The translations under genes were made by a program, and so were the position numbers. DNA of 64,000 nucleotides. Origin: Isoptericola halotolerans (lineage in GTDB: Bacteria; Actinomycetota; Actinomycetes; Actinomycetales; Cellulomonadaceae). The notes beneath the pieces were generated by a model that did not search any database, had not been told where the DNA came from, and was given only the letters and a program-made list of their open reading frames with translations. The stretch is taken from positions 1 through 64,000 of the forward strand of contig NZ_PVTX01000003.1 in NCBI RefSeq assembly GCF_003003075.1, written 5' to 3'. This document shows positions 1,158 to 50,526 of the stretch, piece after piece; within the stretch, counting starts at the first letter, position 1, and every line of letters begins with the position of its first letter.

Positions 1158-1171
1158 GTTCAACCTCTCCT

Positions 1172-3407: not shown

Positions 3408-3423
3408 CGCAGGACCGCCGATT

Positions 3424-3453: not shown

Positions 3454-3518
3454 GCTCCCTGCTAGCCTCCCCGGACAAACGTCACAAAACCGACGCCTGT
3501 CAGAGCAAAGGGGCTGCC

Positions 3519-6173: not shown

Positions 6174-6179
6174 TACTGT
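6174..6179 (+). promoter_or_regulatory. Leaderless -10 box TACTGT
   Basis: TACTGT followed by exactly seven bases and a GTG start at 6187 is the standard leaderless arrangement. No ribosome site precedes this gene. Confidence 0.5.
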
Positions 6180-6186
6180 GTGCGCC

Positions 6187-6654
6187 GTGCGCACCGAACT
6201 CACACTCGCAGACACCCTGAACACCCTCGGACTCCTCGGCGGCTCGACGCTGCCCCGCTTCGTCACCGACGTCGGCGGCCAGGGGGACGTCCTCGAAGTC
6301 GTCGCCGACGCCCGCTCCGTCAAGGGCCTTCCCGGTCCGCTCAAGCTGGCGACGAAGCTCGTCCCGGCCGTCCGCTCCAAGCTCCGCGTCGAGCAGTTCG
6401 ACGGCGGCGTCGCCGTCCTCAGCGTCGATGCGTCGGCCGGCGGGCTGCCCGCCCACAAGATGCTCGGTCTGGCGAAGAACCGGATCGAGTCCGTCCTGGA
6501 GTCCAAGGGGCTCCCGGCCGGCTCCGTGGAGATCCGTCCCGACGCCCGCATCGCGCTGGACGTCCAGCGGCTGCTGGCCGCCCGCCACCCCGGCACGGTC
6601 GTCACGGGCATGACCTTCACCGACGGCCAGGTCGCCCTCGACACGGCCGCCTGA
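6187..6654 (+). CDS. Conserved hypothetical protein, alpha/beta, 155 aa
   Basis: I do not recognise a family with a known role. The protein begins VRTELTLADTLNTLGLLGG and has three strand-like segments (GDVLEVVADA, KLRVEQFDGGVAVLSVDA, GTVVTGMTFTDGQVALD) and two basic helices (LKLATKLVPAVRSKL, LGLAKNRIESVLE). There is no signal peptide or membrane segment. The closing TGMTFTDGQVALDTAA resembles the end of small lipid- or envelope-linked actinobacterial proteins, but this is weak. The GTG at 6187 is chosen because TACTGT stands seven bases upstream; the in-frame GTG at 6178 lies in that -10 box. It is convergent with the LCP gene across a palindromic repeat. Confidence 0.7.
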   Translation: MRTELTLADTLNTLGLLGGSTLPRFVTDVGGQGDVLEVVADARSVKGLPGPLKLATKLVPAVRSKLRVEQFDGGVAVLSVDASAGGLPAHKMLGLAKNRIESVLESKGLPAGSVEIRPDARIALDVQRLLAARHPGTVVTGMTFTDGQVALDTAA

Positions 6655-6674: not shown

Positions 6675-6748
6675 CGTTGTGGGCGCGATTTCTGGGTCCG
6701 AAACTCCGCCATAGCGGACAGAACGGACCAGAAATCGCGCCCACAACG
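6675..6748. repeat. Palindromic repeat, CGTTGTGGG family, copy 1
   Basis: A 74 bp element whose arms CGTTGTGGGCGCGATTTCTG and its complement pair perfectly over 21 bp; the centre is only partly paired. It lies between convergent genes and could act as a terminator, but the same terminal sequences recur at 12173-12246 and 49766-49840, so it is a dispersed element. Confidence 0.75.
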
Positions 6749-6773: not shown

Positions 6774-7874
6774 CTACTTCACCGTCGCGGGGAGGAGCTC
6801 CAGCTCCTCGCCGTGCTTCGCCAGGAACTCCTGCGCCTCGCCCTTCGAGATCGCCTTCGTCAGCTTGCCGAAGGGCTCCTCGTCCAGCACCACGATCGAC
6901 TGCCCGTCGGCGGAGCGGCCGGTGCCCTCGTACGGCGCGGTCATGAACACCACGTCGTTCGTGGAGATCTCCCGCGCCTCGTCGAAGATCTCCCGCATCC
7001 GCGTGATCGACAGGGCGTCGTCGGTGGCGACGGAGTGGCTCACCTCGTCGAAGAACCGGGTCATCATCACCGGGTCGCGGCGGTTGTTGTTGATCTTGCC
7101 CAGGATGGCGCGCATCCAGTTCTGCTGGCGCTGCACCCGCCCGAAGTCGCCGTTGGACAGCCCGTAGCGCTGGCGGGTGTACGACAGCGCCTCCTCGCCG
7201 CTCATCATGTGCTTGCCGGCCTCGAAGAACACGTCGTCACCGTCGCCGATGTCCTCCGGCACGGTGATCTGCACGCCCTCCAGGGCGTCCGTCAGCCCGA
7301 CGAACTGCTCGAACCCGGTCACCACGAAGTGGTGGATGCGCACGTCGGTGAGCTTCTCGACCGTGTCGATCATGAGGCTCGGCCCGCCGTAGGCGTAGGC
7401 GGCGTTGATCTTGGCGTGGCCGTGCCCGGGGATCTCCACCCACGAGTCACGCGGGATCGAGACCACCACGGCGGACGACCGGTCGGCCGGCAGGTGGACG
7501 AGCATGATGGCGTCGGGCCGCTGACCGGACTCGGTCAGGCTGGCGAGGCCGTCGGCCGACCCGCGCGAGTCCGACCCGAGCACGAGGAAGTTGATGTCGG
7601 TGAGCTCGGTGCCCTCCTCCGACGGCGCCGGCTCGGGGCGGTCCGTGAGCTCGGCGAAGGGGTCGCCCAGCTTCTCGACGTTCGCGTCCAGCCGCTGCTG
7701 GAACCACCAGATCCCCCCGAAGGCCGCACCGGCCAGGACCGCCACCAGCGTCACCACGACGACGAGCGCGCGAGCGGTGTTGCTCAGGCGGCGGGTGCCG
7801 CGGGCGTGACGGCGCGGCGGGGGCTCGTCGGGCATCCCGGGCACGAGCGGGCCGGACGAAGAGGGAGGAGTCAC
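6774..7874 (-). CDS. LytR-CpsA-Psr family glycopolymer ligase
   Basis: Membrane-anchored phosphotransferase that moves undecaprenyl-linked wall polymers onto peptidoglycan. The 366 aa protein has a cytosolic basic N-terminus, one transmembrane helix at about 36-57 and an extracellular LCP domain. Visible conserved residues include the Asp/Arg in FLVLGSDSRG, Arg in SIPRDSW, the Asn in HAKINAAYAYGG and Arg residues in YTRQRYGLSNGDFGRVQRQQ. The start GTG follows TAGGAT by six bases, so the message is probably leaderless. It is divergent from the GT4/LCP operon. The many polymer genes in the window supply its likely substrate. Confidence 0.9.
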   Translation of the reverse strand: MTPPSSSGPLVPGMPDEPPPRRHARGTRRLSNTARALVVVVTLVAVLAGAAFGGIWWFQQRLDANVEKLGDPFAELTDRPEPAPSEEGTELTDINFLVLGSDSRGSADGLASLTESGQRPDAIMLVHLPADRSSAVVVSIPRDSWVEIPGHGHAKINAAYAYGGPSLMIDTVEKLTDVRIHHFVVTGFEQFVGLTDALEGVQITVPEDIGDGDDVFFEAGKHMMSGEEALSYTRQRYGLSNGDFGRVQRQQNWMRAILGKINNNRRDPVMMTRFFDEVSHSVATDDALSITRMREIFDEAREISTNDVVFMTAPYEGTGRSADGQSIVVLDEEPFGKLTKAISKGEAQEFLAKHGEELELLPATVK

Positions 7875-11140: not shown

Positions 11141-12144
11141 CCCGGACCCGACCCCGCGGGGCGCGCGTCGCTGCGCTCGTGGCCGCGGCCGCGCTGGCGC
11201 TGGGCGCCTGCTCGCCGAGCGCCGAGCCCGCTCCCGAGGCCGCGTCGACGCAGACCACGACGGAGGCGGTGGAACCGGCGGAGAAGTCGGCCGCGCCGTC
11301 CCCGTCGGCGTCGCCGGAGGTGGAGGACCCGCTCGGCGAGGGCACCCGCAACATGCTGCTCATCGGCACGGACTCGCGCGACGCCTCCTCGATGGGCGGC
11401 AACGCGGACATCATCATGCTCGCGCACGTGCCGGCGGACCGGGAGCAGCTCTACCTGGTCTCGTTCACGCGGGACATGCACGTGCCGATCCCGGGGATCG
11501 GCGAGGGGAAGATCAACTCGGCGTTCTCACGCGGGGGGACCCAGACGCTGGTCGACACGGTCTCGGAGCTGGTGGGCGGCCTCGAGATCGACTACACGAT
11601 GCAGACGAACTTCAACGGGTTCATCAACCTCACGCGGGCCCTCGAGGGGTTCGAGGTGGACAACAAGCACCACTCGACGGTGACGGTGAACTCCACCGGG
11701 CGGGTCGTGGACTTCCCCGAGGGCCGCGTCACGCTGGAGAACACCGACGGGCTCATCTACGTGCGCGAGCGCAAACGGCTGCCCCTGGGCGACCTGGACC
11801 GCACCGAGCGCCAGCGCGCCGCGGTGATCGGGATGATGGACCGCATCGCGGAGCGCAGCGACGACCCGGCGTTCGTCGCCGAGCTGATCGCCCTGCTGTT
11901 CAACAACGTCAAGGTCACCGGCGACCTGGCCGTGGAGGACTTCGTGGACCTGGCGCCGATGGCCTCCGAGCTCGAGCGGGACGACGTGGTGAGCCTCATG
12001 TCGCCGATCACCGGGTTCGGCACCGTGGGCGGGGCGTCGGTGAACCTGGTGGACGAGGCGCAGACGGCGGACCTCGGCGAGGCGCTGCGCACGGACACGA
12101 TGGACGAGTACGTCGAGGAGTACGGCACCGACTACGCGCCCTGA
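11137..12144 (+). CDS. LytR-CpsA-Psr domain lipoprotein
   Basis: LCP-domain protein of 335 aa that probably attaches glycans to the cell wall. It is unusual in having a lipoprotein signal instead of a transmembrane anchor: the lipobox LGAC ends at Cys25 and is followed by a Ser/Pro/Glu-rich linker to about residue 65. The LCP core shows MLLIGTDSRD, SFTRDMHVPIPGIGEGKINSAF and VRERKRLPLGDLDRTERQRA, keeping the Asp/Arg pattern. The ATG overlaps the stop of the preceding glycosyltransferase, so the ligase is made with the enzymes likely to build its substrate. A palindromic repeat lies 28 bp after the stop. Confidence 0.87.
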   Translation: MTRTRPRGARVAALVAAAALALGACSPSAEPAPEAASTQTTTEAVEPAEKSAAPSPSASPEVEDPLGEGTRNMLLIGTDSRDASSMGGNADIIMLAHVPADREQLYLVSFTRDMHVPIPGIGEGKINSAFSRGGTQTLVDTVSELVGGLEIDYTMQTNFNGFINLTRALEGFEVDNKHHSTVTVNSTGRVVDFPEGRVTLENTDGLIYVRERKRLPLGDLDRTERQRAAVIGMMDRIAERSDDPAFVAELIALLFNNVKVTGDLAVEDFVDLAPMASELERDDVVSLMSPITGFGTVGGASVNLVDEAQTADLGEALRTDTMDEYVEEYGTDYAP

Positions 12145-12172: not shown

Positions 12173-12246
12173 CGTTGTGGGTGCACGTTGGCACTCAAAA
12201 TGCCCGATATGGGCGTTTATGCCTGTGCCCTCGAGCACCCACAACG
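12173..12246. repeat. Palindromic repeat, CGTTGTGGG family, copy 2
   Basis: A 74 bp element with arms CGTTGTGGGTGC and GCACCCACAACG between the convergent LCP lipoprotein and methyltransferase genes. Same length and same nine terminal bases as copy 1, but the inner arm differs, with paired changes that keep the stem. Confidence 0.72.
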
Positions 12247-12266: not shown

Positions 12267-13031
12267 TCAGGCGGCGGGGCGGGTACCCCACGCGACGAGC
12301 GCCGGTCCGCGCTGCGGCAGCGCCCGCTGGACCACGCGGAACGGCCACGTCGCCGCCGCGGTCGCCACGCCCTGGAGCGCCGACGACGGCTGGAACAGCC
12401 GCCCGGAGCGCGCGGTGCGCTCAGCCGTCGTCGTCCGGTCGTCCAGCCGACGGCGGGCCACCTGGTTGCGTACCGCCTCGAGTGCGTAGCCGAGCGGCGC
12501 GCCGTAGAGCCGCCCACCGACGTCGGCGAGCCCGGCCCCGGCGAGCAGCGCGCGCATCTGGGCGGGCTCGTAGCGCCGGTGGTGGCCGACGGCGGCGTCC
12601 ATGGGGCCGTAGCGCGCCCGCCAGGCGGGGGTCGAGACGAGCACCAGGCCGCCCGGGCGCAGCAGCTCGACCCAGGAGGCGAGCGCGCCGGCGTCGTCCT
12701 CGAGGTGTTCGAGCACCTCGAACGCGCACACGACGTCGTACCCGCGGTCGGTGGGGCCCGGCCCGGCCGCGGAGCGGTCCAGCTCGTCGACCGATCCGTG
12801 CACGACCCGGCCTGGCAGGCCGGCGTCGGTCAGCCGTGCGGCGGCGACGTCCGCGCTGGCGCCGTCGAGCTCGACGCCGGTGTAGTCGTGCCCGGCGGCG
12901 GCGAGCCGGACGCCCACGGCGCCCTGCCCGCAGCCGACCTCGAGGACGCGGCGGGGCGCGGGCGGGAACTCACGCCGGACGACGTCCCAGCGCAGGGAGC
13001 CGAACAGGGTCAGGGGTGGGGCGGTGGTCAC
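12267..13031 (-). CDS. SAM-dependent methyltransferase
   Basis: Class I methyltransferase of 254 aa. Motif I is VLEVGCGQGAVG (about 29-40); the acidic loop is YTGVELD; YDVVCAFEVLEHLEDD is motif II/III of the UbiG/Methyltransf_11 type; LRPGGLVLVSTPAW follows. GHHRRYEP is shared with enzymes that methylate lipid-linked sugars. It is a close paralogue of the C-terminal half of the preceding gene (shared LRWDVVRR, STPAW, HRRYEP and EAVRN blocks), so the two arose by duplication. The GTG overlaps the upstream stop by four bases. The substrate is probably a surface glycan, from context only. Confidence 0.82.
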   Translation of the reverse strand: MTTAPPLTLFGSLRWDVVRREFPPAPRRVLEVGCGQGAVGVRLAAAGHDYTGVELDGASADVAAARLTDAGLPGRVVHGSVDELDRSAAGPGPTDRGYDVVCAFEVLEHLEDDAGALASWVELLRPGGLVLVSTPAWRARYGPMDAAVGHHRRYEPAQMRALLAGAGLADVGGRLYGAPLGYALEAVRNQVARRRLDDRTTTAERTARSGRLFQPSSALQGVATAAATWPFRVVQRALPQRGPALVAWGTRPAA

Positions 13032-29248: not shown

Positions 29249-30415
29249 GTGGAGTCGACGCGCCCGCGCATCATGACCGTCTACGGCACACGGCCCGAGG
29301 CGATCAAGGTAGCGCCCGTCATCAAGGCCCTGGAGGAGAGCGACTCACTTGACTCGGTCACCGTCGTGACCGGACAGCACCGCGAGATGCTCGACCAGGT
29401 GAACGAGCTGTTCGGCATCGAACCGGACCACGACCTCGACATCTTCCAGCACGGAGCGTCCCTCTCGACGATCGTCGCGCGCGTTCTTGAGCGTCTTGAC
29501 CCGGTGCTGGAGAGCGAGAAGCCCGCTGCTGTGGTGGTCCAGGGCGACACCTCGACGTCCACGGCAGCTGCCCTCGCTGCCTTCCACCGCGGGATCCCGG
29601 TGGTGCACGTCGAGGCCGGCCTCCGCTCCGGCAACATCAACTCGCCCTTCCCGGAGGAGGCCAACCGCAAGATCACCTCGCAGATCGCGGCTCTCCACCT
29701 CGCGCCGACATCCACCAGCAAGGAGAACCTGGTGCGTGAGGGCGTCGCCGCGGACGACATCGTGGTGACCGGCAACACCGTCATCGACGCACTGCTGATG
29801 ACCGTCGAGAAGAAGGCACCGTTCACCGACACGAACCTGGAAGACCTGGCCGACTCCGGCTGCAGGATCCTCCTCGTTACCACCCACCGCCGTGAGAACT
29901 GGGGCGGTGCGATGGAAGGTGTCGGGCGTGCGCTCGCCCGCCTGGCTCGGACGTTCCCGGATGTCGAGATCGTCCTGCCGGCCCATCGCAACCCGGTGGT
30001 CCGGCGGGCGGTCTTGCCTCACCTGGACGGCCTGTCCAACGTCACCGTGACGGAACCCCTCGCCTACGGTGAGTTCACGCGCATGCTCTCTCTCGCCACC
30101 GTGGTCCTCACCGACTCCGGCGGTGTGCAGGAAGAGGCGCCCAGCCTCGGCAAACCGGTGCTCGTTATGCGCGAGAACACGGAGCGACCGGAAGCCGTCG
30201 ATGCGGGCACCGTCAAGCTCATCGGCACCGACGAGGAGCGCATCGTCGACGAGGTGACCACCTTGCTCTCGGACGCCGCCGCCTACGAGGCAATGGCGCA
30301 GGCCGTCAACCCTTACGGCGACGGCCGGAGCGCCGCGCGCTCAGAAACGTCGATCGGCCACCTGCTGGGGTCCGGCGAGCGCGCAGAAGACTGGGAAATG
30401 GAGTTCGCCCGATGA
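29249..30415 (+). CDS. wecB: UDP-N-acetylglucosamine 2-epimerase (non-hydrolysing), copy 1
   Basis: Interconverts UDP-GlcNAc and UDP-ManNAc; cytosolic. The 388 aa protein begins with IMTVYGTRPEAIKVAPVIKAL and has VTGQHREMLDQV, VVVQGDTSTSTAAALAAF, VEAGLRSGNINSPFPEEANRKI, TTHRRENWG and LTDSGGVQEEAPSLGKPVLVMRENTERPEAV, a full set for WecB/MnaA. It lies four bases after the ABC ATPase and overlaps the next gene by four. Product UDP-ManNAc could feed the WecC-type dehydrogenase at 38937 or a ManNAc linkage unit. A second, diverged copy lies at 34279. Confidence 0.93.
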   Translation: MESTRPRIMTVYGTRPEAIKVAPVIKALEESDSLDSVTVVTGQHREMLDQVNELFGIEPDHDLDIFQHGASLSTIVARVLERLDPVLESEKPAAVVVQGDTSTSTAAALAAFHRGIPVVHVEAGLRSGNINSPFPEEANRKITSQIAALHLAPTSTSKENLVREGVAADDIVVTGNTVIDALLMTVEKKAPFTDTNLEDLADSGCRILLVTTHRRENWGGAMEGVGRALARLARTFPDVEIVLPAHRNPVVRRAVLPHLDGLSNVTVTEPLAYGEFTRMLSLATVVLTDSGGVQEEAPSLGKPVLVMRENTERPEAVDAGTVKLIGTDEERIVDEVTTLLSDAAAYEAMAQAVNPYGDGRSAARSETSIGHLLGSGERAEDWEMEFAR

Positions 30416-32049: not shown

Positions 32050-32555
32050 TCCATGGCATACTCGAGCCGAGTAGCGTGCTTCACGGCGCGGTCAATACCG
32101 CAGGTCAACGCCCGAGTGCCAACCGACAAGTAGACGACTGAGAGCGGGTCGTGCTCGCCACCGAAGAGCACGTCAAAGGCCACGGGATCCGGAAGATTTA
32201 CCAGCGTATGACGCACGCCTGCGTAATCCCGGCACACACACCAGGGCCGCACGCTGACAGCCGCAGCCATCGACTCCCTCACCCGTGTCGTCCCTATAGC
32301 CCTCGGCGAGCTCCCCAACCTCGGCCACATCGTGAGAGCCTCGCTGCTGTCGCGCTGGCCTACTTCGATCTCCCGGCACAGGCAACGTGCGATCAATCAG
32401 CGGTTCGAACGCCTGCGCGGCTCGACCCCTCGGCTCACCACGTAGTGACCCCACATGGCGCCCGTTCATTATTGCTCGACTGGTCATTCGACAGGGTGTG
32501 GGATCGACTGAAGGAAAGTCTCCGGTGCACCTCGCGAAAGAGCGCGGCGACACGA
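32050..32555. other. Gap without a convincing gene; possible decayed coding sequence
   Basis: About 500 bases lie between convergent genes. The best frame is minus-strand 32043-32396 (TTG start directly after a stop, no ribosome site), whose last half, VNLPDPVAFDVLFGGEHDPLS and onward, looks protein-like, while its first half does not. Another minus frame (32173-32583) overlaps it. This could be the remnant of a glycan gene broken by frameshift. I see no RNA gene or clear terminator. Confidence 0.3.
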
Positions 32556-33296
32556 CTAGCTGATACCAAGCTTGTGCGCCCACTCCTCCACATACGCGTC
32601 TGCCGTGACCGAGAAAAAGTGCTGCATGACGCGCGACTCTGCCATCTCTCGAAGATCACGTCCTGACCATGGGACTGTACGCGCGAACTCGTCGTATACA
32701 CTCCGAAGTTCACCACCGTCTTGAGTAGCCGTGGACATCTGACCAACCTCGACCCGAGAACCGAGAAAGGACGTCAGTGCATTGCTCTTGCTGGCGTTGT
32801 CAAGATCGGACCGGAGTACGATCAACTCGGAGCGGCCGTGAGTGAACGTCGCCGATCCATCGAACTCCCCTTGGAAAACGTCGATGCCGAACTGGCTACC
32901 AATCTCATGATCGAACCAAGACAGAGGCGCGCGGAAATCCACGTTACGCCATATTCGCGACGTGAGAGAACTGTCACGACACAGTGCCCGCAACTCATCC
33001 GGGCCGTCCCCCAGGCGCCTCAAACGGGCGAAACCGACCGAGAGATTTCGGGCCACCACATCACGTACCAAGCTGATGATCTTCACCGGCCTATCCGGCT
33101 CGGCCTCGAGAATTTCTCGCACCATCAATCCGTCCTGGACATGTCGCGCTGACTGACCGTCCGGCCGGCGCAACGCATTCAACGAGTCGCGCGCGATGTG
33201 GTGAATATGGAATGCCTTGGCATCCGATAACTCGGCCAATGCCCGGTGAGTCGCAGACGAACCAACCCTACCCATAGTCAGTACCAGCACAATCAT
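32556..33296 (-). CDS. Putative capsular polysaccharide synthesis protein (NKWYS family, sulfotransferase-like)
   Basis: A 246 aa protein similar to the putative capsular polysaccharide synthesis family (PF10364). The start VLTMGRVGSSATHRAL resembles a P-loop-like PAPS site; FHIHHIARDSL, PVKIISLVRDVVARNLSVGF (3'-phosphate motif), WFDHEIGSQFGIDVFQGEFD and LIVLRSDLDN follow in the family's order, ending ESRVMQHFFS. It probably transfers a group, perhaps sulfate, to a surface glycan. It is the last gene of a long minus-strand operon and has moderate GC like its neighbours. Confidence 0.65.
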   Translation of the reverse strand: MIVLVLTMGRVGSSATHRALAELSDAKAFHIHHIARDSLNALRRPDGQSARHVQDGLMVREILEAEPDRPVKIISLVRDVVARNLSVGFARLRRLGDGPDELRALCRDSSLTSRIWRNVDFRAPLSWFDHEIGSQFGIDVFQGEFDGSATFTHGRSELIVLRSDLDNASKSNALTSFLGSRVEVGQMSTATQDGGELRSVYDEFARTVPWSGRDLREMAESRVMQHFFSVTADAYVEEWAHKLGIS

Positions 33297-33365
33297 GCAA
33301 GTACTCTACCTACTCAACGTCAGAATGTGAAGAGTCGGTACGGTCCTGCCTTGGATCCTCGAACG

Positions 33366-34244
33366 CTACGGGATGGGGCTGTCCGCCCTATACCAGTCGA
33401 CGGCTTGCGAGAACAGGCTCCGAAACTCTCTGGGCGCGGGCGCAGCGTGGCCGTCTCTCTCCGAATCGTATAGATGGAACCTGATCTGCCCGTCTGCCGA
33501 TGTGCCGTCCGCGCCGATGACGGACATCGCTCGCTTGAACGGAAGATAGTGGTTCCGAATATGGAAGGCGTCCGAAATATTCTGTGAGTAGAAGACCTTG
33601 GGCCGCGAGTTCGCGTCACGGTAAGCGTGAACCATATCGGTGCGCGCAGGATCGGCCTCGAAAGCATTCTCAGCGTTCCCGCCGTGTGCAATGCGGACGT
33701 AGTTTTCGACCGCGCGAGGGTGATACGCAGAGACGTCAATTTGCGGATTGAAGCAGAACACTCTCGCATCTTTGAAATGTAGAGCAGTCCTCAGCGCTGC
33801 GAAACCGCCTCCCGAGCCGCCAACAAAAATCAGCGACTTCGCGCCACTCACCTCAAGAGCTCTCTGAACAACGCTAACCATCGAGTGAATCGGATCCCAA
33901 CCGGATGCCCCCAGATACCATCCGAGCCGGAGCTCAGGGCTCAGTGCCAAAGTGGGATCAGCAAACGAGACGAAGGAGTCGCCGGTACCCGTCGACGAGC
34001 CGATTCGATCAAAACGGGGATATGTGTCGGTCGGCCGCACGGCTCCATGCAGGTTGACACGGAGTACATCTGATTCTCGGAGGTCGGCGAAGTAGAACAA
34101 ATCTATGTCATCGCGAATCGACGAACTGCTGACGAACCTACCCGGTGCCGCGTCGTCTCGAGCCCAGTGCGGCCTTTGCTCAGCCTCGTATCGACCTAGA
34201 TCAGGTACTACCCGAGGCATCGATGCTGTAGTCAAGCGAATCAT
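33366..34244 (-). CDS. Alpha/beta-hydrolase-like protein
   Basis: A 292 aa cytosolic protein. SLIFVGGSGGGFAALRTALHF is a nucleophile elbow (GGSGGG), FCFNPQIDVSAYHP follows, and DGHAAPAPREF carries the expected late His, so it is probably an esterase, acetylhydrolase or transferase acting on a glycan. I cannot name a specific family. AAGGAG touches the ATG at 34244, so translation may instead begin at TTG 34235, nine bases from that site; the difference is three residues. It follows the second wecB by 34 bp. Confidence 0.6.
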   Translation of the reverse strand: MIRLTTASMPRVVPDLGRYEAEQRPHWARDDAAPGRFVSSSSIRDDIDLFYFADLRESDVLRVNLHGAVRPTDTYPRFDRIGSSTGTGDSFVSFADPTLALSPELRLGWYLGASGWDPIHSMVSVVQRALEVSGAKSLIFVGGSGGGFAALRTALHFKDARVFCFNPQIDVSAYHPRAVENYVRIAHGGNAENAFEADPARTDMVHAYRDANSRPKVFYSQNISDAFHIRNHYLPFKRAMSVIGADGTSADGQIRFHLYDSERDGHAAPAPREFRSLFSQAVDWYRADSPIP

Positions 34245-34278
34245 CTCCTTTGAAACCTTGATATAGACGACGCAGGAA

Positions 34279-35358
34279 TCACAGCAGTTGATGCAACTTG
34301 ACAGCAATTCGAGACCCCGCATTGCCATCCCACAGAGGCGGAACGGATCTTGGCTGAGGTACCGCTGCGAGCACCTCACCAACCGCCCGTCCGAGAGATT
34401 CTCGAGATACAAGTCGGTTTGTTCCGTGAGAAATTGTCACGGGGCGCTCTGTGTTCTCTCTGAGTGTGAGACAAGGGATGCCGAAGATCGTCGTCTCCTC
34501 CTGTACGCCGCCAGAATCGGTAATCGTTACGTTAGAACCGCGCACGAGGCTCATGAAGTCGACATAGCCTAGCGGATCAACCACGCGCACGTTAGCGTGA
34601 TCATCTAGGCCGGCGCCTAGCAATCTGGCACGACCCCTCGGATGCAGAGGTAGGACGATCTCAATCACATCAGCGACCGAGTGTAGCGCGCCGACGATAT
34701 TCCTGGCATCATCACTGGAATCGACGTTTGAGGGACGATGCAGCGTGGCAACCGCATATGGTTCTTCTAGGCCGAACTTCCGTTTGATCGCCGATACGTC
34801 GAAACGGTCGTGATTTCGGAGCAGCGTGTCAATCATGGGGTTGCCAACAAAGTGGATGCCCGCCTCGAGCACACCTTCGTTCAACAGATGCTCGACGGCA
34901 TCCTGGCTCGTAGCGAAATGTTGGTCGCAGATCTGGTCCGTGACGATACGGTTGATCTCTTCAGGCATGCGCCGATCGAAACTGCGCAGACCAGCCTCAA
35001 CGTGCGCTACAGGTATCCCCATACGTGCACCCACCAGGGCGGATGCGACGGTCGAATTGACATCGCCGTAAACAACGATCCACTTTGGCTGCAGTTCAGT
35101 GAGCAAGTATTCAAGTTCGGTCATTGCTCGGGCAATTTGCTGAATCCCGCTTCCGCCACCCGCGCCCAGATTGATGTCTGGCTCAGGGAGTTCCAACTCG
35201 CGGAAGAATACACCTGACATCTGCTCGTCGAAGTGCTGGCCCGTATGAACCAACTTTTGACTCACGTCAAGATTGGCCAGCGCACGATGAACTGGTGCGA
35301 GCTTCGGAAAGTTTGGGCGTGCACCCGCTACGTGGACCAGGTCGGTGCGCTCTGTCAT
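34279..35358 (-). CDS. wecB: UDP-N-acetylglucosamine 2-epimerase (non-hydrolysing), copy 2
   Basis: Second WecB-type epimerase, 359 aa, quite different from the copy at 29249. VHVAGARPNFPKLAPVHRAL, VHTGQHFDEQMSG, VVYGDVNSTVASALVGA, VEAGLRSFDRRMPEEINRIVTD, ATLHRPSNVDS and ITDSGGVQEETTIFGIPCLTLRENTERPVT are the family blocks. The RPNFPK and GDVNST forms are typical of epimerases in variable O-antigen and capsule clusters. GGAGAG precedes the ATG. With WecC in the same operon it would give UDP-ManNAcA; alternatively it acts on a modified UDP-sugar. Confidence 0.9.
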   Translation of the reverse strand: MTERTDLVHVAGARPNFPKLAPVHRALANLDVSQKLVHTGQHFDEQMSGVFFRELELPEPDINLGAGGGSGIQQIARAMTELEYLLTELQPKWIVVYGDVNSTVASALVGARMGIPVAHVEAGLRSFDRRMPEEINRIVTDQICDQHFATSQDAVEHLLNEGVLEAGIHFVGNPMIDTLLRNHDRFDVSAIKRKFGLEEPYAVATLHRPSNVDSSDDARNIVGALHSVADVIEIVLPLHPRGRARLLGAGLDDHANVRVVDPLGYVDFMSLVRGSNVTITDSGGVQEETTIFGIPCLTLRENTERPVTISHGTNRLVSRESLGRAVGEVLAAVPQPRSVPPLWDGNAGSRIAVKLHQLL

Positions 35359-35369
35359 TTAAATCTCTC

Positions 35370-36410
35370 CTAAGCGGGGTAATGATAGCGGCGCACACCT
35401 ATCTCCATGCACTGAGTGGCGAACGTACCAGCGATACGAACCACGTCCTCCCAGCTGACCTCGTACCAACGGTCGGCAGCAGACGCAAGATGTCTCTCGT
35501 ACACGGGACGCATAAGCGCAGTGCTTTTCCCCACAGCCACGACGAAGTCAAAGGATCTGGCGAATTGTGTGACCGAGTCTGACTCGTCATGCACAAAGAG
35601 TATTCGAGTGACGCCGTGCGGCACGGTCGACGCTGCTACGCGGGAAGCGAGCACCTGGGATTCCCATCCGCCCCAGAGTTTCCTCAACTCTAGGACATTC
35701 CATCGCGCCCGACGCGCGAGCCCAGTCAGTACCGCGGGGACATCGAAGTCAGCTTCGAGCAAGAAGACAGCAGACACCTCACCCAATCGATCGGTCGCCA
35801 CAACGCTGTGTTCAGACGTGCTCGTCCTGACGTAAGACTCGCCAAGTCCATCGCCGTGCGCCGCCCAAGCACGCCAGGAAGGCCACACCGCACCGTCCGG
35901 ATCGCTAGTCGAGTCCGCGCTCGTCCTCGGGACATTCGAAGCGGCTAGTCCGTGCCGGACGAGATCTGGGACCAGCGATCCCTGCTCATCACGTAGCAGC
36001 AGACCAGCGGCGCCATAACGCTCAAGCACCCACGCTAAAGACTCTAGTACGTAGTCTTCCCAATCGACCTTACCCTCAAGGATCCAGTTCGCCTCCGAGA
36101 CTACACTTTCGACCGGGAACCCGTAAGGCCGGACAGCTTTGTAGATGTCCGAGTCTGTGAATAGAAGCACGCGAAACTTGTCGAGCATGGATTGAGCCCG
36201 GTATAGCTCGCGCAGCGATTCGACAACCTCCGAGCTCTTCAGGTCGAAGAACGGGACCACGTAGATTGGTAGTTCGGCAACCGACGGATCATGTGCTGCG
36301 TCAATCTGAATACGCGTACTGCGCATGACGTCATATCGCTGGCGATTCTTCTGAATCAGATTAGCAACAGGTTGAAAGTCATGGTACAAGGGTTGCTTCG
36401 CTTTGCTCAT
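35370..36410 (-). CDS. Hypothetical glycan-cluster protein, 346 aa
   Basis: I do not recognise this protein. It starts MSKAKQPLYHDFQPVANLIQ and has two similar-sized alpha/beta halves: YVVPFFDLKSSEVVESLRELYRAQ with VLLFTDSDIYKAVRPYGFPVESV, and VFLLEADFDVPAVLTGLARRARWNVLEL with ILFVHDESDSVTQFARSFDFVVAVGKST. There is no signal peptide or membrane helix. The pattern of short strands and Asp-rich turns is reminiscent of GT-B or Rossmann folds, but no motif supports a catalytic claim. It overlaps the preceding gene by four bases and is followed by wecB after 11 bp, so it is translated with the glycan enzymes. Confidence 0.6.
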   Translation of the reverse strand: MSKAKQPLYHDFQPVANLIQKNRQRYDVMRSTRIQIDAAHDPSVAELPIYVVPFFDLKSSEVVESLRELYRAQSMLDKFRVLLFTDSDIYKAVRPYGFPVESVVSEANWILEGKVDWEDYVLESLAWVLERYGAAGLLLRDEQGSLVPDLVRHGLAASNVPRTSADSTSDPDGAVWPSWRAWAAHGDGLGESYVRTSTSEHSVVATDRLGEVSAVFLLEADFDVPAVLTGLARRARWNVLELRKLWGGWESQVLASRVAASTVPHGVTRILFVHDESDSVTQFARSFDFVVAVGKSTALMRPVYERHLASAADRWYEVSWEDVVRIAGTFATQCMEIGVRRYHYPA

Positions 36411-38422
36411 CGATATCGCCTCAACAGCTCGACTATTGCGTCCGCCGCGGTATGGGATCCATTGCGGACGACGATGTCATCCGCGCGCTCACTCATTGAG
36501 CTTCGTACATGACTGCTTGACATCGCAAGTACACTCTCTCTGATCGCCAATTCGGTGGGATCTTGAAGCGTAATTCCAAGGCCACTCTCACCTGCAAATT
36601 CACCGCGCGCAGCTTGGTCATCGGTGATTGTATGTTGGTTTGGAACCCAGATCGTCGGCAAGCCAGCAGTTATCCACTCATGGAAAGAATTGTAACCAGT
36701 GGCGGAGACGGCAAAATCGAAGGCGTTCGCGTACCTCGCCAGAGGAAAGACCGATACAGAGAATCCAGTATCTCTACCCTGTTTCTCCGAAATTGGAGCG
36801 CTAGTGGTGACCGCTTTCCATTCGGGGCCAAGGGCTTCGATTTCACTCACAAAGGTGCGCTGCACATCGGCGATATCGTTGATGTTTCCTGCGCCGAGCG
36901 TCACAAGAGCTAGTCGACCGTGGGCGGGCAGCTCTAGTTCCGCGCGCGCCTCATCGCGGCCAAGAATTTCATTCTTGGATATAACGGTGATCGGCGCCAC
37001 CTTTACGGCACCATCGACCTTGGTCGTTGCGCCGCGGTCCTTCTCCGCCGCATAGTCTCCGGGCTCGATGACCAAGTCAAACGGATGCGCTTTTTCAAGT
37101 TGCTCCGGAGTGATGTGTGGCTTCCACATGCCGCGGCGTACCCATACTGAGCGGACCCCGGCACGTCGTATGGCGCGGACCAGTCCTCCATATGGCCACA
37201 CTCCATCGAACACGACAACTTCTGGTTGGTGGGTCTCGATTGCGCGGCTTATCCGCTCGTCGCAATAGTCGTTCCACTCACCCGGGGGGTTCCGCAGTGC
37301 ACTGCGGAACGGAACATACTCGTAGCTAAACCCGAACTGGCTGACCACAGGGACGCCCTGCGACAGAGACACGAATACTGGTTCGGCACGATCGGCGATT
37401 GCACGTGCGATCCCCAGCTCGCGAGTCAAATGGCCCATGCCCGCGCCGTTACTGGTCATGAACATCACCACGGGCCGTCGTGCTAATTCGTCTCGGCTTA
37501 CGTCGGCCCCGTCCGCCGATGTCGCCGGCTTCGCGCTCACACCGAGGCGTCGCGCCAACGCAGTTCGGTAGAATGAATCGCGGAGGGTCGCGACCTCTTT
37601 CGACTTCTCGAACGCTCCGTCCGGCTTGCCGTAATCCTGCAGTACCTTCGCGAGGTTGCCGTCGTCGAAAGTCAGACCGTCCCAATGGATCCTGTCTGCG
37701 GCACTCGAAGGTAGGACGACATCCGTGCCATTCTGCAACGCCCCAAGGATCACCGTCTCCCAATCCGGCTGAGTGGTGATGTCCGGGGATGCGACCCAAA
37801 GACGGACACTACTTTCTTGTCTGGCTGCAGATGCGCTCGCCAAGTCTTCAAGTTCACTGCGAAACCCGAGCACAGTCATGCCGAGCCAATCGACGGCGGA
37901 ATCGTGGGGAGGAACCTGTCTTATTGAGTAGTCGAGCCAGTTGTAATCAAATACACGCCCTTCAAGGGTTGTCAAAGATTCTACTTCGCTACGGATCGTA
38001 GTGTCGATTGGGTGCCAGATCGGCGCGACTCCTGTCGCGCGCTGAAGAAGTTGATCAACATCTTCGGCCCGATATGGCGATACAGGATTGTCCTGGCTTT
38101 GATTTGCGACAACGTGGACGCGGTGGGCGTTGATCAGGCTCTGCATCCTGATCGTCTCAGGAATGAGCCCCGGTTGCCGCAATACGAGCGATTGGGTCGT
38201 GGCCGGTTCGTCAGGCGCAAGGACGTGGATTCGGTGGCTCGTGACCACGTCTAAAATTTTCTCGTTCCAAGGAGTAGACCGACGAAATCGACTGGTCCTC
38301 ATGGGATAGATCGCTACTTGCATCCCTGCTCTAGCAGCCTGGTCGATTTCCTCTGCCAATCTCCTACCGGCACCGCCGGCGAAACGCATCTCGCCAGCGA
38401 AAACAATATCAAAAGACTTCAA
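36407..38422 (-). CDS. Large two-part glycosyltransferase, MurG/UDPGT-like C-terminal domain
   Basis: A 671 aa protein. The C-terminal half (about 315-671) is a GT-B/GT28-like enzyme: VVMFMTSNGAGMGHLTRELGIARAIADRAEPVFVSL resembles the MurG GxGGH acceptor loop, LVTLGAGNINDI the middle strand, and FDFAVSATGYNSFHEWITAGLPTIWVPN the donor site. The N-terminal half (1-310) begins FDIVFAGEMRFAGGAGRRLAEEIDQAARAG, like the N-domain of a second GT-B enzyme, and may be a degenerate or separate transferase. Both ends overlap neighbours by four bases. Low GC and an unusual size point to recent acquisition. Confidence 0.75.
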   Translation of the reverse strand: MKSFDIVFAGEMRFAGGAGRRLAEEIDQAARAGMQVAIYPMRTSRFRRSTPWNEKILDVVTSHRIHVLAPDEPATTQSLVLRQPGLIPETIRMQSLINAHRVHVVANQSQDNPVSPYRAEDVDQLLQRATGVAPIWHPIDTTIRSEVESLTTLEGRVFDYNWLDYSIRQVPPHDSAVDWLGMTVLGFRSELEDLASASAARQESSVRLWVASPDITTQPDWETVILGALQNGTDVVLPSSAADRIHWDGLTFDDGNLAKVLQDYGKPDGAFEKSKEVATLRDSFYRTALARRLGVSAKPATSADGADVSRDELARRPVVMFMTSNGAGMGHLTRELGIARAIADRAEPVFVSLSQGVPVVSQFGFSYEYVPFRSALRNPPGEWNDYCDERISRAIETHQPEVVVFDGVWPYGGLVRAIRRAGVRSVWVRRGMWKPHITPEQLEKAHPFDLVIEPGDYAAEKDRGATTKVDGAVKVAPITVISKNEILGRDEARAELELPAHGRLALVTLGAGNINDIADVQRTFVSEIEALGPEWKAVTTSAPISEKQGRDTGFSVSVFPLARYANAFDFAVSATGYNSFHEWITAGLPTIWVPNQHTITDDQAARGEFAGESGLGITLQDPTELAIRESVLAMSSSHVRSSMSERADDIVVRNGSHTAADAIVELLRRYR

Positions 38423-38940
38423 CCTGCTCGCCCTCCAGGACCTTCGGCCACGTTTGTTCCGTGCGAGCTCAGTAGTTTACTTCTAATCGCATCGCGCGTG
38501 GAAGCTGCGCGCTCGGATTCTTCATCAACCCAGAGCGCAACTCGTTCGATCGTCGCGGCAGATTCGCCAGCGTTCTTGTCGAGCTCCTTGAGCCTGCTGA
38601 CGACCTGTTCGTAGTCTGCAAGTTCCTGCGCATGGGCAGAATGCAACTGCCTGAGGAGAGACACGTCTGCTCTCCTGGCTGCTTCGGCTGCTTCTTTTGC
38701 AAGGTCGCGCATACGGCGGTCTCGTCTAGCGAACGACCGTGCGTCTCGATCGCTCATGACCAACTGGAAACTACTTGTTGCGACGACCAGACCGATGAGG
38801 AGCCCTTCCACCTCGACACGGGACCCATTCGTCACAAGGATGGCAGCTAGAACGATCAGAGCGATAGCGGCCATGAAGGTTCGGATTCCGACAAAGGGTC
38901 GGACTCTCGACGCCAGGATTTCTGTCCTCAAATGGTTCAC
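38419..38940 (-). CDS. Small membrane protein with cytosolic coiled coil
   Basis: A 173 aa protein with two hydrophobic helices, FMAAIALIVLAAILVTNG and VEGLLIGLVVATSSFQLVM, followed by a charged coiled coil (about 65-140: ARRDRRMRDLAKEAAEAARRA and onward) and a short tail. No enzyme motif is visible. Similar small coiled-coil membrane proteins sit in actinobacterial polymer clusters and may scaffold the synthesis complex. The GTG overlaps the wecC stop by four bases, and its own stop overlaps the glycosyltransferase start. Confidence 0.65.
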   Translation of the reverse strand: MNHLRTEILASRVRPFVGIRTFMAAIALIVLAAILVTNGSRVEVEGLLIGLVVATSSFQLVMSDRDARSFARRDRRMRDLAKEAAEAARRADVSLLRQLHSAHAQELADYEQVVSRLKELDKNAGESAATIERVALWVDEESERAASTRDAIRSKLLSSHGTNVAEGPGGRAG

Positions 38941-47454: not shown

Positions 47455-50400
47455 CTACCCCCAGGCGGTCGTCACCCAGAGCGCCACCGCGCGCTCCGGG
47501 TCCGCGAGCACCGCACCCAGCAGCACCGTGCGGTCCGGGCGTCCCAGCACGTCCGCGATGCCCGCGGCGAGCCCCGCCGCCGACGTCGCGTGCACCCGCC
47601 CGGTCGCGTCGACCCACCACGGCACGGGCCGCCCGGCCACGGAGAGCCGCTCGTGCTCGAACCAGGACGTCGGCATGCGGTGGTCCAGGACGGCCAGACG
47701 CGGGTCCAGCTCCCGCTCGGTGCCGGGCATGTCCGGGGCGGGCAGCCCGTCCTCCCCCGCCAGCGGCAGGTCGAGCAGGTCGGCCAGCGCCTCGGCGTCG
47801 GCGGCCGGCGCGGGCAGGACCGCCCCGAGCGCGGCCCAGCGCGCGGTCCCGGCCACCTCGACGTCGTCGGCCCGCTGCACGACGACGTCGCTCCCATCGA
47901 GCGCGGGCAGCCGGTCGGGCAACGGGTCCAGCGCGGACGACCGGTCGGACGGGTCGAGCCGCGCCGAGAGCCGCGCCAGGCCCCGCCACACCACGAGGGC
48001 GTCGCGCAGCGGCAGGCTCGCACCGACGGCGGGCAGCCGGTCGAGCGCGGCGGGCCAGTCGGCGGCGTCGAGGTCCGTCAGCGCCTCCACGCCGCCGAGC
48101 GCACGCCGGGTCGCGACGTCGAGCCCGGCCAGGTCGCGAGGCGCCGGCGGCAGGAGGGGGACGCCGTCGTGCAGCGCGAAGGGCGCCCCGAAGCGTTCCC
48201 GCAGCCACCACGCGGTGTACGACGGCGCGGAGGCGCGGCCGGTGCGCACCGGTGCCAGCAGGGCGTGGCGGGCGTCCGGGTCGGAGGAGAGCCGGGACAG
48301 GACGCTCGGCCAGGCCTCGTCACCGACGGCGTCGAGGTCGGCGACGGCCACGAGGTCACCCACGGCGACGCCGGCACCGCACCGGCCGGCCAGCATCCGC
48401 AGGTAGTCCGACCAGCCGGCGAGCCAGCCGGAGGGGTCGTCGGGGTCCTGGTCGGCGTCGCTCCCGGCGTCCGGGCCCTCGAGCCCCGAGCCGTCGGAGC
48501 CGTCGGCCTCCGGGGTGACGACGTCCCGCACCGTGTAGACGGCGGGCTCCGTCCGCGCGCCGGCCGCGGCGAGCACCGGGGCGCTGTACCGGGCCACGAA
48601 CTCGGGCGCGATGGGCGCCAGGCCCGTGAACAGCTCGGCCGCCCACGTGCCCGGCAGCACGGTCTCGCGCAGCGACACCGTCTCGCCGTCGACGGTCGGC
48701 ACGGGCAGCTCGCCGGTCCAGAACGGCACGTCGGTGCCGCCGGCCAGCCGCACGAGCGCGAGCGCGTGGCTCACCAGCTCCAACGCACCGTCGTCGGTGC
48801 CGCCCTCGAGCACGGCCTCGGCCGCGGCCAGGGAGACGTCCCGCACCTCCGGGTCGTGGAGCAACCGGCGGGGGTCGGTCGCCACGGCGCCGGCCCGCAG
48901 CAGCAGCGGGTGCGCGGCGTCCGGGTGCACCACGCGCAGACCGAGGGCCCGCGCCGTCGCCGCGAGGGAGGCCTCGTCGCCGTCGTCCGCGGACTCGGGC
49001 AGGACGACGGCGCCCCGGACGCCGGCGACACGGCCGTCGGCGAGCGGGATGCGCGTCCCGGCGAGGGCCTCGAGCACCCCCGGCTCCGCGGCGTGCGGCT
49101 CGAGCGCGGTGAGCAGGGCGTGCCACCGGGCGGGCGACAGACCGGCGGGCAGGTCGTCGACGAGGTCGGCGAGCGAGGCGACCGTGGCACCCAGCGACCG
49201 CACCACCGCCTGGTGCCCCGTGGGCACCGCGACGATGCCCGGCAGCACGGGGGCCAGGGCCGCGACGAGCTCGGGGTCCTCACCGGGCGCGCCGGTGATC
49301 ACCAGGGCGTCGACCGGCGCGACGCCGCCGTCCAGGAGGGGCGTGGTGCGCAGCGCGTCGACCGCCGCCGAGCGGATCGCCGCGTCGAGCTCGGACGCCG
49401 GCAGCCCCGTCGGCACGAGGCCGAGCACGCCGGCCGCGCCGTCCGTCCCGGGAGCGCCGGCCGGATCGCCGGCGAGGTCGCCCAGCAGGGCCGCGTACTC
49501 CCGGCCGGCCGCCGCGGCGAGCCGTTCCGTCGCCGCGCAGGGCAGCACGTGGCGCCGCCCGGCATCCACGGGGAACGTGGCCAGCAGCACCGCCGGGAGG
49601 TCCAGACCGACGTCCGTGGGGGTGGGTGCGTGCAGCACGCGACGCCGCGGCGCGTCCGGTGTGCCGCCGTCGGGCAGGAGCGCCCAGGTGAGCGACCAGT
49701 CGAGGCGCCGGTGCTCGCGCGGCAGGTCGGCGACCTCGGCCTCCTCGAACCGCCCCGTCGCCGTCCGTTGTGGGCGCGAACTCTGGCCCGAAATGCGCCG
49801 TGTGTCCTGATCTGCGTCAACAGAATTCGCGCCCACAACGCTCACGGTGACGGCGTCGAAGGCGGGGAACGCGAGGAGCAGGACGTCATCGACGTCGGCG
49901 AGCTGGGCGCGCACCGACGCCACCGCCGCGTCGTCGCGCAGCGCCACCTCGACCACCGTGTCGTGCTCGGCGTCGGCGGGCAGCGCGGGCGCCTCCACCG
50001 GCAGGCGCAGCACCGGCAGGTCGTGCCCCCGGTCCGCGAAGTCCGCCGCGAGCCGCTCCGCACCCGGGCGATCCTCCGCGGTCAGCTTCGCGAGGACCTC
50101 GGACGTCGCCGCCGCCGAGAAGCGCACCCCGCCCGAGCGCGAGCGCACCGTGACGTCGTCCGACACCGAGCGCACCGCGGCGAACCCCACACCGAAGCGG
50201 CCCACCAGGCCTGCGCCGGACTTCGCCGAGGCGCGCAGCGAGGCGAGCGACGCCACGCCGTCGGCATCCAGGGCAGCACCGGTGTTGGCCACCACGAGGC
50301 GGCGCTCGGCGAGGTCGAGGCGGACGAGGGCGTGGCCCCGCGCACCAGCACGAGCCGCGGCGTCGGCCGCGTTCTGCAGCAGCTCGACGACGACACGATC

Positions 50401-50526
50401 GCGGTAGTGGCCGCGGGCGTGGTCCTCCTCCGAGTTCGCGTCCTCACGGAAGCGGGTGGCGGACCCGAGCCACGCCTCCGCGACCGCGTGCCGCAGCGCG
50501 GCGGTCCCGAAGACGTCTTCCGTCAC
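47455..50526 (-). CDS. Large Hsp90-type (GHKL) ATPase domain protein, sacsin-like
   Basis: A 1023 aa protein with an N-terminal GHKL ATPase: HYRDRVVVELLQNAADAAA (N box), VVANTGAALDADGVASLA and GAGLVGRFGVGFAAVRSVSDDVTV (G boxes). The remainder is long, Asp/Ala-rich and without named domains. This layout matches actinobacterial sacsin N-terminal ATPase-like proteins; the role is unknown, possibly chaperone-like. The GTG at 50526 overlaps the DUF3027 stop by four bases. A 75 bp palindromic repeat (49766-49840) lies inside it and adds exactly 25 codons in frame at about residues 229-253. Confidence 0.8.
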   Translation of the reverse strand: MTEDVFGTAALRHAVAEAWLGSATRFREDANSEEDHARGHYRDRVVVELLQNAADAAARAGARGHALVRLDLAERRLVVANTGAALDADGVASLASLRASAKSGAGLVGRFGVGFAAVRSVSDDVTVRSRSGGVRFSAAATSEVLAKLTAEDRPGAERLAADFADRGHDLPVLRLPVEAPALPADAEHDTVVEVALRDDAAVASVRAQLADVDDVLLLAFPAFDAVTVSVVGANSVDADQDTRRISGQSSRPQRTATGRFEEAEVADLPREHRRLDWSLTWALLPDGGTPDAPRRRVLHAPTPTDVGLDLPAVLLATFPVDAGRRHVLPCAATERLAAAAGREYAALLGDLAGDPAGAPGTDGAAGVLGLVPTGLPASELDAAIRSAAVDALRTTPLLDGGVAPVDALVITGAPGEDPELVAALAPVLPGIVAVPTGHQAVVRSLGATVASLADLVDDLPAGLSPARWHALLTALEPHAAEPGVLEALAGTRIPLADGRVAGVRGAVVLPESADDGDEASLAATARALGLRVVHPDAAHPLLLRAGAVATDPRRLLHDPEVRDVSLAAAEAVLEGGTDDGALELVSHALALVRLAGGTDVPFWTGELPVPTVDGETVSLRETVLPGTWAAELFTGLAPIAPEFVARYSAPVLAAAGARTEPAVYTVRDVVTPEADGSDGSGLEGPDAGSDADQDPDDPSGWLAGWSDYLRMLAGRCGAGVAVGDLVAVADLDAVGDEAWPSVLSRLSSDPDARHALLAPVRTGRASAPSYTAWWLRERFGAPFALHDGVPLLPPAPRDLAGLDVATRRALGGVEALTDLDAADWPAALDRLPAVGASLPLRDALVVWRGLARLSARLDPSDRSSALDPLPDRLPALDGSDVVVQRADDVEVAGTARWAALGAVLPAPAADAEALADLLDLPLAGEDGLPAPDMPGTERELDPRLAVLDHRMPTSWFEHERLSVAGRPVPWWVDATGRVHATSAAGLAAGIADVLGRPDRTVLLGAVLADPERAVALWVTTAWG
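49766..49840. repeat. Palindromic repeat, CGTTGTGGG family, copy 3, in frame inside a gene
   Basis: Arms CGTTGTGGGCGCGAA and TTCGCGCCCACAACG pair perfectly over 15 bp, with weaker pairing further in. At 75 bp the element is a multiple of three and has no stop in the frame used, so the host protein reads through it. Confidence 0.75.

What the first reader, a model, noticed from the sequence alone, without database searches (positions are those of the whole stretch)
49766..49840. A palindromic repeat domesticated in frame inside an ATPase gene
Three elements of 74, 74 and 75 bp share CGTTGTGGG ends and long complementary arms (6675-6748, 12173-12246, 49766-49840). Two lie between convergent genes; the third lies in the GHKL ATPase gene, is exactly 25 codons long and adds no stop. 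Inner arm bases differ between copies, but the changes are paired, so the stem, not the sequence, is kept. This looks like a REP/MITE-like family that can enter coding sequence.
Basis: seen in the sequence. Interest (0 to 1): 0.72.

Follow-up and report, generated by a model that had tools for sequence, protein, structure and literature searches.

The report
REPIN-like palindromes entering Isoptericola genes
A small hairpin-forming DNA repeat, scattered at the ends of genes in a genus of actinobacteria, has also settled in frame inside several genes, and at some sites shared between species its arms resemble the other copies of their own genome rather than the copy at the same site elsewhere.

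Summary
The three palindromes are real and belong to a dispersed family: 43 copies in the window's genome, matches in 14 of 18 genomes of the genus. Most placed copies lie just after stop codons, chiefly between convergent genes. In-frame copies occur in the window's GHKL ATPase and in five other genes (sensor kinase, MenE-like ligase, MoeA, urea-amidolyase-like, NnrE-like), in MoeA and the urea-amidolyase-like gene at one codon phase in five species each. There are three tiers: family-wide ends (GYTGTGRG), arms typical of a genome, cores that mostly differ from copy to copy. That is the published REPIN architecture, but no Y1/RAYT gene was found in 29 genomes and target duplications show no excess. 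Where genomes have different arm types, a shared site can follow its own genome (MoeA: 0.57 between G058 and G137, 0.96 and 0.93 within each); over all same-length shared sites the effect is small (within 0.90, orthologous 0.86, background 0.84). I read this as an old REPIN-like population read by an unidentified factor and tolerated in genes as loop insertions. "Domesticated" is not supported.

The parts
6675..6748 (.). Palindromic element copy 1 (74 bp, arms CGTTGTGGGCGCGATTTCTGG), between convergent genes
   Evidence: the orthologous gap in G042 and G058 holds a hairpin of the family with other arms, in G084 one with only one end intact
12173..12246 (.). Palindromic element copy 2 (74 bp, outer arms CGTTGTGGGTGC), between convergent genes
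   Evidence: alignable copy at the same site in G094; a different hairpin repeat (GAGATACCG type) in that gap in G042 and G058
49766..49840 (.). Palindromic element copy 3 (75 bp), in frame inside the GHKL ATPase gene, from the last base of codon 229 to the second base of codon 254
   Evidence: same gene offset in G094 and G021, degenerate in G042
47455..50526 (-). Host gene of copy 3: 1023-residue protein with an N-terminal GHKL (HATPase_c-like) match below the Pfam cut-off
6178..6654 (+). Gene ending 20 bp before copy 1
   Evidence: no Pfam match
6774..7844 (-). Convergent gene after copy 1, LytR_cpsA_psr family
11179..12144 (+). Gene ending 28 bp before copy 2, LytR_cpsA_psr family
12267..13031 (-). 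Convergent gene after copy 2, methyltransferase

Best explanation
The three palindromes belong to an old REPIN-like population of non-autonomous hairpin elements. Each is a pair of inverted arms (about 22 bp each) around a core that mostly differs from copy to copy. Shown: a dispersed family in two length classes, enriched at gene 3' ends, present in reading frames in all three codon phases, sitting at the same sites in several species, with arms alike within most genomes and different between some. Inferred: a trans-acting factor of the host (not a Y1/RAYT enzyme as far as searched) recognises the arms, once to move the element, and arms stay close to the type of their genome while cores drift. 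Coding copies survive because they entered variable loops and left the frame open. Between convergent genes the hairpins may also act as two-way terminators, as a by-product or a second reason for retention.
For: Copy number with zero control; 14 of 18 genus genomes. 73 of 108 intergenic copies in convergent gaps against 40 of 189 adjacent gene pairs in general, p about 5e-25; median 21 nt from the stop codons of convergent neighbours. In-frame copies in six genes; one codon phase in 5 of 5 hairpin-bearing MoeA and 5 of 5 urea-amidolyase-like orthologues (my reading). Arms at a shared site can follow the genome: MoeA G058 against G137 0.57 (background between these genomes 0.52), within G058 0.96 and within G137 0.93; copy at window 6675 against G042 0.72 (background 0.72), within G000 0.89. 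Covariation in 30 copies of G058: 94% of cells paired, 92 double changes against a mean of 34 in shuffles, 0 of 500 shuffles reach it. Inside the ATPase the core diverges more than the rest of the gene (p 2e-5, 0.008, 0.03 for three species pairs); in the sensor kinase 32 of 32 outer arm bases are unchanged against 312 of 374 outside (p 0.004). REPINs as published in PMC3116915: two conserved ends, a spacer kept in length and pairing, compensatory changes common (passages).
Against: No mobility gene was found: Y1_Tnp absent from 18 genus and 11 family genomes; no transposase among the 25 commonest of 118 Pfam families in 89 neighbour proteins. Site memory is not gone: over 22 same-length orthologous pairs the median arm identity is 0.86, against 0.84 for other copies of the same two genomes and 0.90 within a genome; within exceeds orthologous in 12 of 22 only, and orthologous exceeds background in 15 of 22. 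My first comparison (0.91 within, 0.67 orthologous, 0.61 background; closest arms in the own genome in 18 of 25) mixed length classes in the orthologous pairs and so overstated the effect. G072 arms are hardly alike within the genome (0.55-0.59). Movement is not seen directly; the best case is one site filled in G000 and empty in four species (copy 3), without clean ends. Arm conservation inside the ATPase is weak (p 0.07-0.19 for all sites). In the 74-75 bp class symmetric pairing of cores is no better than between copies.
Confidence: 0.5

Rival explanations
1. They are two-way intrinsic-type terminators or 3'-end RNA processing hairpins, kept by selection at gene ends; similar arms reflect one favoured hairpin per lineage, and coding copies are accidents.
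For: Position right after stop codons and preference for convergent gaps; strong stems with compensatory changes.
Against: A terminator needs a stem, not arms about 0.9 identical at dozens of sites; coding copies keep good arms although termination there would be harmful; lengths fall in two classes, 62-65 and 74-75 bp, plus one of 76, which termination does not require.
Confidence: 0.25
2. Independent insertions: lineages were invaded by their own subfamilies, which prefer the same sites, so many shared sites are not inherited.
For: Different length classes at one site (MoeA: 75 bp in G021, 64 bp in G058; ATPase: 75 bp in G000 and 64 bp in G137, in another codon phase); orthologous arms hardly above background; two pairs of G058 copies share 16 of 18 core bases, so some recent copying is possible.
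Against: One codon phase in 5 of 5 MoeA and 5 of 5 urea-amidolyase-like orthologues, and decayed copies at the same sites in G132, G103 and G042; most cores within a genome are unrelated.
Confidence: 0.25
3. Classical MITE mobilised by a DDE transposase.
For: Terminal inverted repeats, small size, intergenic spread.
Against: Direct repeats at the ends are no more common than with shuffled flanks in 118 copies; no longer element with the same arms seen in G000 and G058, though the G058 list was cut; cores mostly unrelated.
Confidence: 0.05
4. DNA uptake signal of the Neisseria kind (recalled), present as inverted pairs.
For: Lineage-specific dialects and gene-end position (recalled for uptake sequences; for this family).
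Against: The motif is not scattered singly: 6 of 6 window occurrences are element ends; in the listed arm matches of two genomes nearly all come in pairs 39-51 bp apart.
Confidence: 0.02

Closest known systems
REPINs (REP doublets forming hairpins), PMC3116915 (passages read)
   Same: Two conserved inverted ends, spacer kept in length and pairing rather than sequence, compensatory changes, many extragenic copies.
   Different: No RAYT/Y1 transposase found here; ends read GYTGTGRG and the GAG lineages do not hold a GT[AG]G foot; copies inside genes.
GTAG/CGTC REP families with intragenic copies, PMC3733652 (abstract and one section read, passages searched)
   Same: Copies within 20 bp of both 3' ends in convergent gaps; copies inside ORFs; different REPs at about the same site of recB in two Xanthomonas species, a precedent for shared sites with species-specific repeats; CGTC REPs also lack a dedicated transposase.
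   Different: Those are 20-40 bp units with an unpaired tag; the word actinobacteria does not occur in that text; here the unit is 62-76 bp and paired to its ends.
Rickettsia palindromic elements, as described in the review PMC10969869 (passages read)
   Same: Palindromes inserted in frame in unrelated metabolic genes.
   Different: Described as about 150 bp with a conserved peptide; here shorter, all three codon phases used, no common peptide, most placed copies intergenic.
MITEs
   Same: Small, terminal inverted repeats, non-autonomous.
   Different: No excess of target duplications, no parent transposon seen, cores mostly not shared.

Membership tests
REP/REPIN | Inverted pair of conserved ends with a variable but pairing spacer | tested here: met
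   for the 64-bp class; in the 74-75 bp class the core pairs no better than chance by an ungapped measure
REP/REPIN | Mostly extragenic, next to gene 3' ends | tested here: met
   108 of 118 placed copies intergenic
REP/REPIN | RAYT / Y1 transposase gene in the genome | tested here: not met
   PF01797: 0 of 18 (E <= 0.001) and 0 of 11 (E <= 0.1); control genomes gave hits
REP/REPIN | GT[AG]G or CGTC foot | tested here: inconclusive
   GGG lineages contain GTGG, GAG lineages contain GTGA
REP/REPIN | Each end is itself a small hairpin | tested here: inconclusive
   ten typed arm types fold differently, -1.9 to -9.9 kcal/mol
MITE | Terminal inverted repeats | tested here: met
MITE | Target site duplication | tested here: not met
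   118 copies, four boundary offsets: counts within the range of shuffled flanks
MITE | Parent transposon with the same ends | tested here: inconclusive
   not seen in G000 and G058 (list cut; two unpaired arm matches not followed)
Rickettsia palindromic element | In-frame palindromes in unrelated genes | tested here: met
Rickettsia palindromic element | Conserved encoded peptide | tested here: not met
   three codon phases, different peptides
DNA uptake sequence | Many single copies of the motif | tested here: not met
Intrinsic terminator | Hairpin right after stop codons | tested here: met
Intrinsic terminator | T-run after the hairpin | not tested
   no count was made
Intrinsic terminator | Measured termination | not testable with these tools
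   needs RNA data
Integron attC site | RYYYAAC/GTTRRRY boxes (recalled) and an integron integrase | not tested
   the ends do not fit the recalled boxes by eye; no search for an integron integrase was made

The most novel reading that the evidence does not exclude
Concerted evolution of short palindrome arms at fixed chromosomal sites, reading frames included: an unknown, non-HUH machinery keeps the roughly 22-bp arms of dozens of scattered elements near a genome-specific type while leaving each copy's core alone, so that host protein sequence changes to follow the arm dialect. The two length classes, 62-65 and 74-75 bp, whose means differ by about 10.5 bp (worked out from the counts), would fit a factor that binds both arms on one face of the DNA helix.
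Probability: 0.2. Interest if true: 0.78.

Novelty: new variant of a known kind. Interest (0 to 1): 0.52.

Why it matters
REPINs are tied in the papers seen here to a Y1 transposase. This is a REPIN-like population in actinobacteria with no such enzyme detected, with copies at the same sites in many species and some locked in reading frames, so single elements can be followed through time. That makes it directly testable whether arms are homogenised, selected or reinserted, and it adds six genes whose proteins carry repeat-derived stretches.

Tried and rejected
Considered and rejected or left: Y1/RAYT mobilisation (none found); MITE with target duplication (no excess); a longer element with the same ends (listed arm matches come nearly all in close pairs; most of the rest belong to known elements whose other arm has more mismatches; G058 position 3034170 and G000 C3 position 144503 were not followed, and the G058 list was cut); uptake signal; known RNA family (one c-di-AMP riboswitch elsewhere in the window, nothing at the elements); a mobility gene among neighbours (89 of 208 listed neighbour genes scanned, no transposase in the 25 families shown of 118); phage carriage (one contig, a 78-bp match with like ends and a poorly paired core). 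Of 44 loci from the scan of 84,980 species genomes, seven lie outside the family; six of these were folded: L064 (Methylobacter) is a clean 64-bp hairpin, L087 (Streptomyces) a fair one, four are weaker and may be chance; L063 was not recovered by my regular expression. Papers: searches gave no description of this family; subscription journals are mostly not held, so absence from print is not shown. The structure model of the ATPase N-terminus (375 residues, 12 sequences, mean pLDDT 67) puts the element on a strand end, a loop and a short strand at middling confidence; it decides nothing. Rows dropped: the G141 urea-amidolyase-like copy and the degenerate or odd-ended copies of G149 and G042 (ATPase), G149 and G103 (urea-amidolyase-like) and G132 (MoeA) were left out; the pool held 158 copies of 13 genomes, 38 of them from G058, and for G141 8 of 21 matches. 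One search placed 23 of the 43 own-genome copies, 38 in G058, 25 in G042, 15 in G094, 10 in G137 and 7 in G021. One of the 15 matches of G132 is a poly-G artefact.

Full report
Observation. The window holds exactly three matches to CGTTGTGGG-N40-70-CCCACAACG, at 6675-6748, 12173-12246 and 49766-49840; none appear in 100 dinucleotide-preserving shuffles. All six occurrences of CGTTGTGGG in the window are ends of these elements, so the unit is the pair, not the motif. That gene encodes 1023 residues with an N-terminal GHKL match below the Pfam cut-off. The element begins on the third base of codon 229 and ends on the second base of codon 254, without a stop.

A family. In the genus, 14 of 18 genomes have matches to the CG-ended form, from 3 to 37 each (one of the 15 in G132 is a poly-G artefact). 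In the family 20 of 200 genomes match the narrow pattern, and in the order 11 of 396 match the wider one, seven of them Isoptericola; of the other four single matches only G406 looks like a full hairpin (by eye).

Place. Of 118 placed copies in six genomes, 73 lie in convergent gaps, 31 between co-directional genes, 4 in divergent gaps and 10 inside genes. Convergent pairs make up 40 of 189 adjacent gene pairs in 222 kb from four of these genomes (p about 5e-25). The median distance to the stop codons of convergent neighbours is 21 nt; co-directional copies lie mostly within 38 nt of the upstream gene's end. This is the placement published for REPs (PMC3733652, section read).

In genes. The ATPase copy is at the same gene offset in G094 and G021 and degenerate in G042; G141, G156, G137 and G149 have copies in the same loop, the last three of the 64-bp class and in another codon phase; nine of 17 orthologues read have none. 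G137 and G156 carry a second in-frame copy near residues 72-75 of the same protein. Further in-frame copies: a HisKA_3/HATPase sensor kinase (G000, G094; 2 of 5 best matches read, the other three only 53-58% identical), a MenE-like AMP-binding enzyme (G000; 1 of 12), a urea-amidolyase-like CT_C_D/CT_A_B protein (5 of 15, a decayed copy in G103), MoeA (5 of 16, one of the 16 doubtful; a decayed copy in G132) and an NnrE-like protein in G058. All three codon phases occur between genes, but within MoeA and within the urea-amidolyase-like protein the phase is the same in the five hairpin-bearing species, which favours one old insertion each. G021 has a short piece like an element end at the MenE site, and G000 one at the MoeA site (my reading). 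Loops with an element are longer than loops without by 13-16 residues in the kinase, 14-20 in the urea-amidolyase-like protein, 5-23 in MoeA and 0-20 in MenE (lengths), and by -2 to 8 in the window's ATPase; these are variable loops, and the insertions are not clean additions of 21 or 25 residues.

Three tiers. The ends are shared over the family (GYTGTGRG). The next 12-15 bp are typical of a genome: GCGCGATTTCTGG and TGCACGACACGCCG in G000, CATGAAATCTGCAG in G058, GCGGACTTTTGGCCC in G137, GCGCGATTTCGGGGAC in G145. Close species share types (G000, G094 and G021; G137 and G156). Cores are on average a little more alike within a genome than shuffled ones, and most are unrelated, but two pairs in G058 share 16 of 18 bases. 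In the 64-bp class cores pair with themselves more than with other copies' cores (G058 0.69 against 0.39; the other three genomes 0.48-0.67 against 0.38-0.41); in the 74-75 bp class they do not (0.27-0.36 against 0.33-0.41), although a one-base bulge would hide pairing from this ungapped measure. For 30 copies of G058 the full stem has 94% of cells paired, 14 pairs with double changes and a covariation score of 0.262 against 0.099 in shuffles, 0 of 500 reaching it. These are copies in one genome; the shuffle control does not model their relatedness.

Do arms follow the genome or the site? A first comparison gave 0.91 within genomes (1251 pairs, 703 of them from G058), 0.67 for orthologous sites (39 pairs) and 0.61 between genomes (5350 pairs), with the closest arms in the own genome in 18 of 25 cases. 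Of the seven others two are ties, one had no same-length copy to compare, and four are among the close species G000, G094 and G021. That comparison is unfair, because 17 of the 39 orthologous pairs join different length classes. With the same length class on both sides, 22 orthologous pairs have median 0.86, other copies of the same two genomes 0.84, and copies within a genome 0.90; within exceeds orthologous in 12 of 22 and orthologous exceeds background in 15 of 22. So orthologous arms are scarcely closer than any two copies of those genomes, and there is some site memory. The clear cases are sites shared by genomes with different dialects: MoeA in G058 and G137 (orthologous 0.57, background 0.52, within 0.96 and 0.93), MoeA in G058 and G156 (0.61, 0.50, 0.96 and 0.83), window copy 1 in G000 and G042 (0.72, 0.72, 0.89 and 0.78); the urea-amidolyase-like site of G072 is unclear because G072 copies are not alike among themselves (0.55). 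The first site holds a hairpin in six species, with one arm type in G000, G094 and G021 and other types in G058, G084 and G042.

Inside genes. Between the three close species, ATPase arms (16 outer bases a side) are 94-97% identical against 86-91% for the rest of the gene, not significant for all sites (p 0.07-0.19) and p 0.03 for third positions in one of three pairs; the core is 67-74% identical, below the rest (p 2e-5, 0.008, 0.03). In the sensor kinase 32 of 32 arm bases are identical against 312 of 374 outside (p 0.004; third positions alone p 0.07).

Mechanism. A REPIN-like unit explains conserved inverted ends, a core free in sequence, gene-end placement and compensatory changes; this is how REPINs are described in PMC3116915 (passages). 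The known engine is missing: no PF01797 hit in 18 genus genomes or in 11 further family genomes with elements, while control genomes give hits. Target duplications are not in excess, no longer element with the same arms was seen in two genomes, and no transposase is among the commonest families of the 89 neighbour proteins scanned. So the factor that reads the arms is inferred, not seen. Movement is supported by one site, filled in G000 and empty in four other species, without clean ends (copy 3), and by the entry into several reading frames. Whether similar arms arise from repair between copies, from selection by a factor, or from replacement at favoured sites cannot be decided with one genome per species.

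Known or new. In-frame palindromes are known in Rickettsia and in several REP-rich bacteria, and different REPs at about the same site of recB in two Xanthomonas species are reported (PMC3733652, section read; PMC10969869, passages). In the searches made I found no description of this family or of REPIN-like elements without a Y1 transposase in actinobacteria; most subscription papers are not held. I class it as a new variant of a known kind.

Noticed in passing
L141 (G042) and L122 (G058), at the site orthologous to window 12173: A different hairpin repeat with GAGATACCG / CGGTATCTC arms lies in the same convergent gap, so more than one palindrome family uses such gaps.
   Followed up: no
L267 (G141 MenE-like gene): A palindrome with unrelated arms (GAGTTGTCAGGC...GCCTGACAACTC) sits in frame at the site where G000 carries its element.
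   Followed up: no
74-75 bp copies listed: In a number of copies one side reads CTGGGC and the other CTGGCC, an extra base on one arm that would give the long class a polarity; seen by eye, not counted.
   Followed up: no
L064 (Methylobacter sp.), 3411-3474: A clean 64-bp hairpin with the same CGTTGTGGG ends in another phylum; homology or coincidence not decided.
   Followed up: partly
G058 chromosome: Sixty positions taken are unevenly spread over eight equal bins (4, 11, 10, 3, 5, 7, 17, 3; p 0.002).
   Followed up: partly
window 1160-1313, minus strand: c-di-AMP riboswitch (RF00379, 64.3 bits).
   Followed up: no
window 29249-38940: Two UDP-GlcNAc 2-epimerase genes, an NKWYS capsular polysaccharide gene and a DUF6270/sulfotransferase-like gene; my gene finder called no gene between 30.4 and 38.9 kb although long ORFs lie there, so codon usage is atypical, perhaps an acquired surface-polysaccharide island; no PADLOC hit in seven proteins.
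   Followed up: partly
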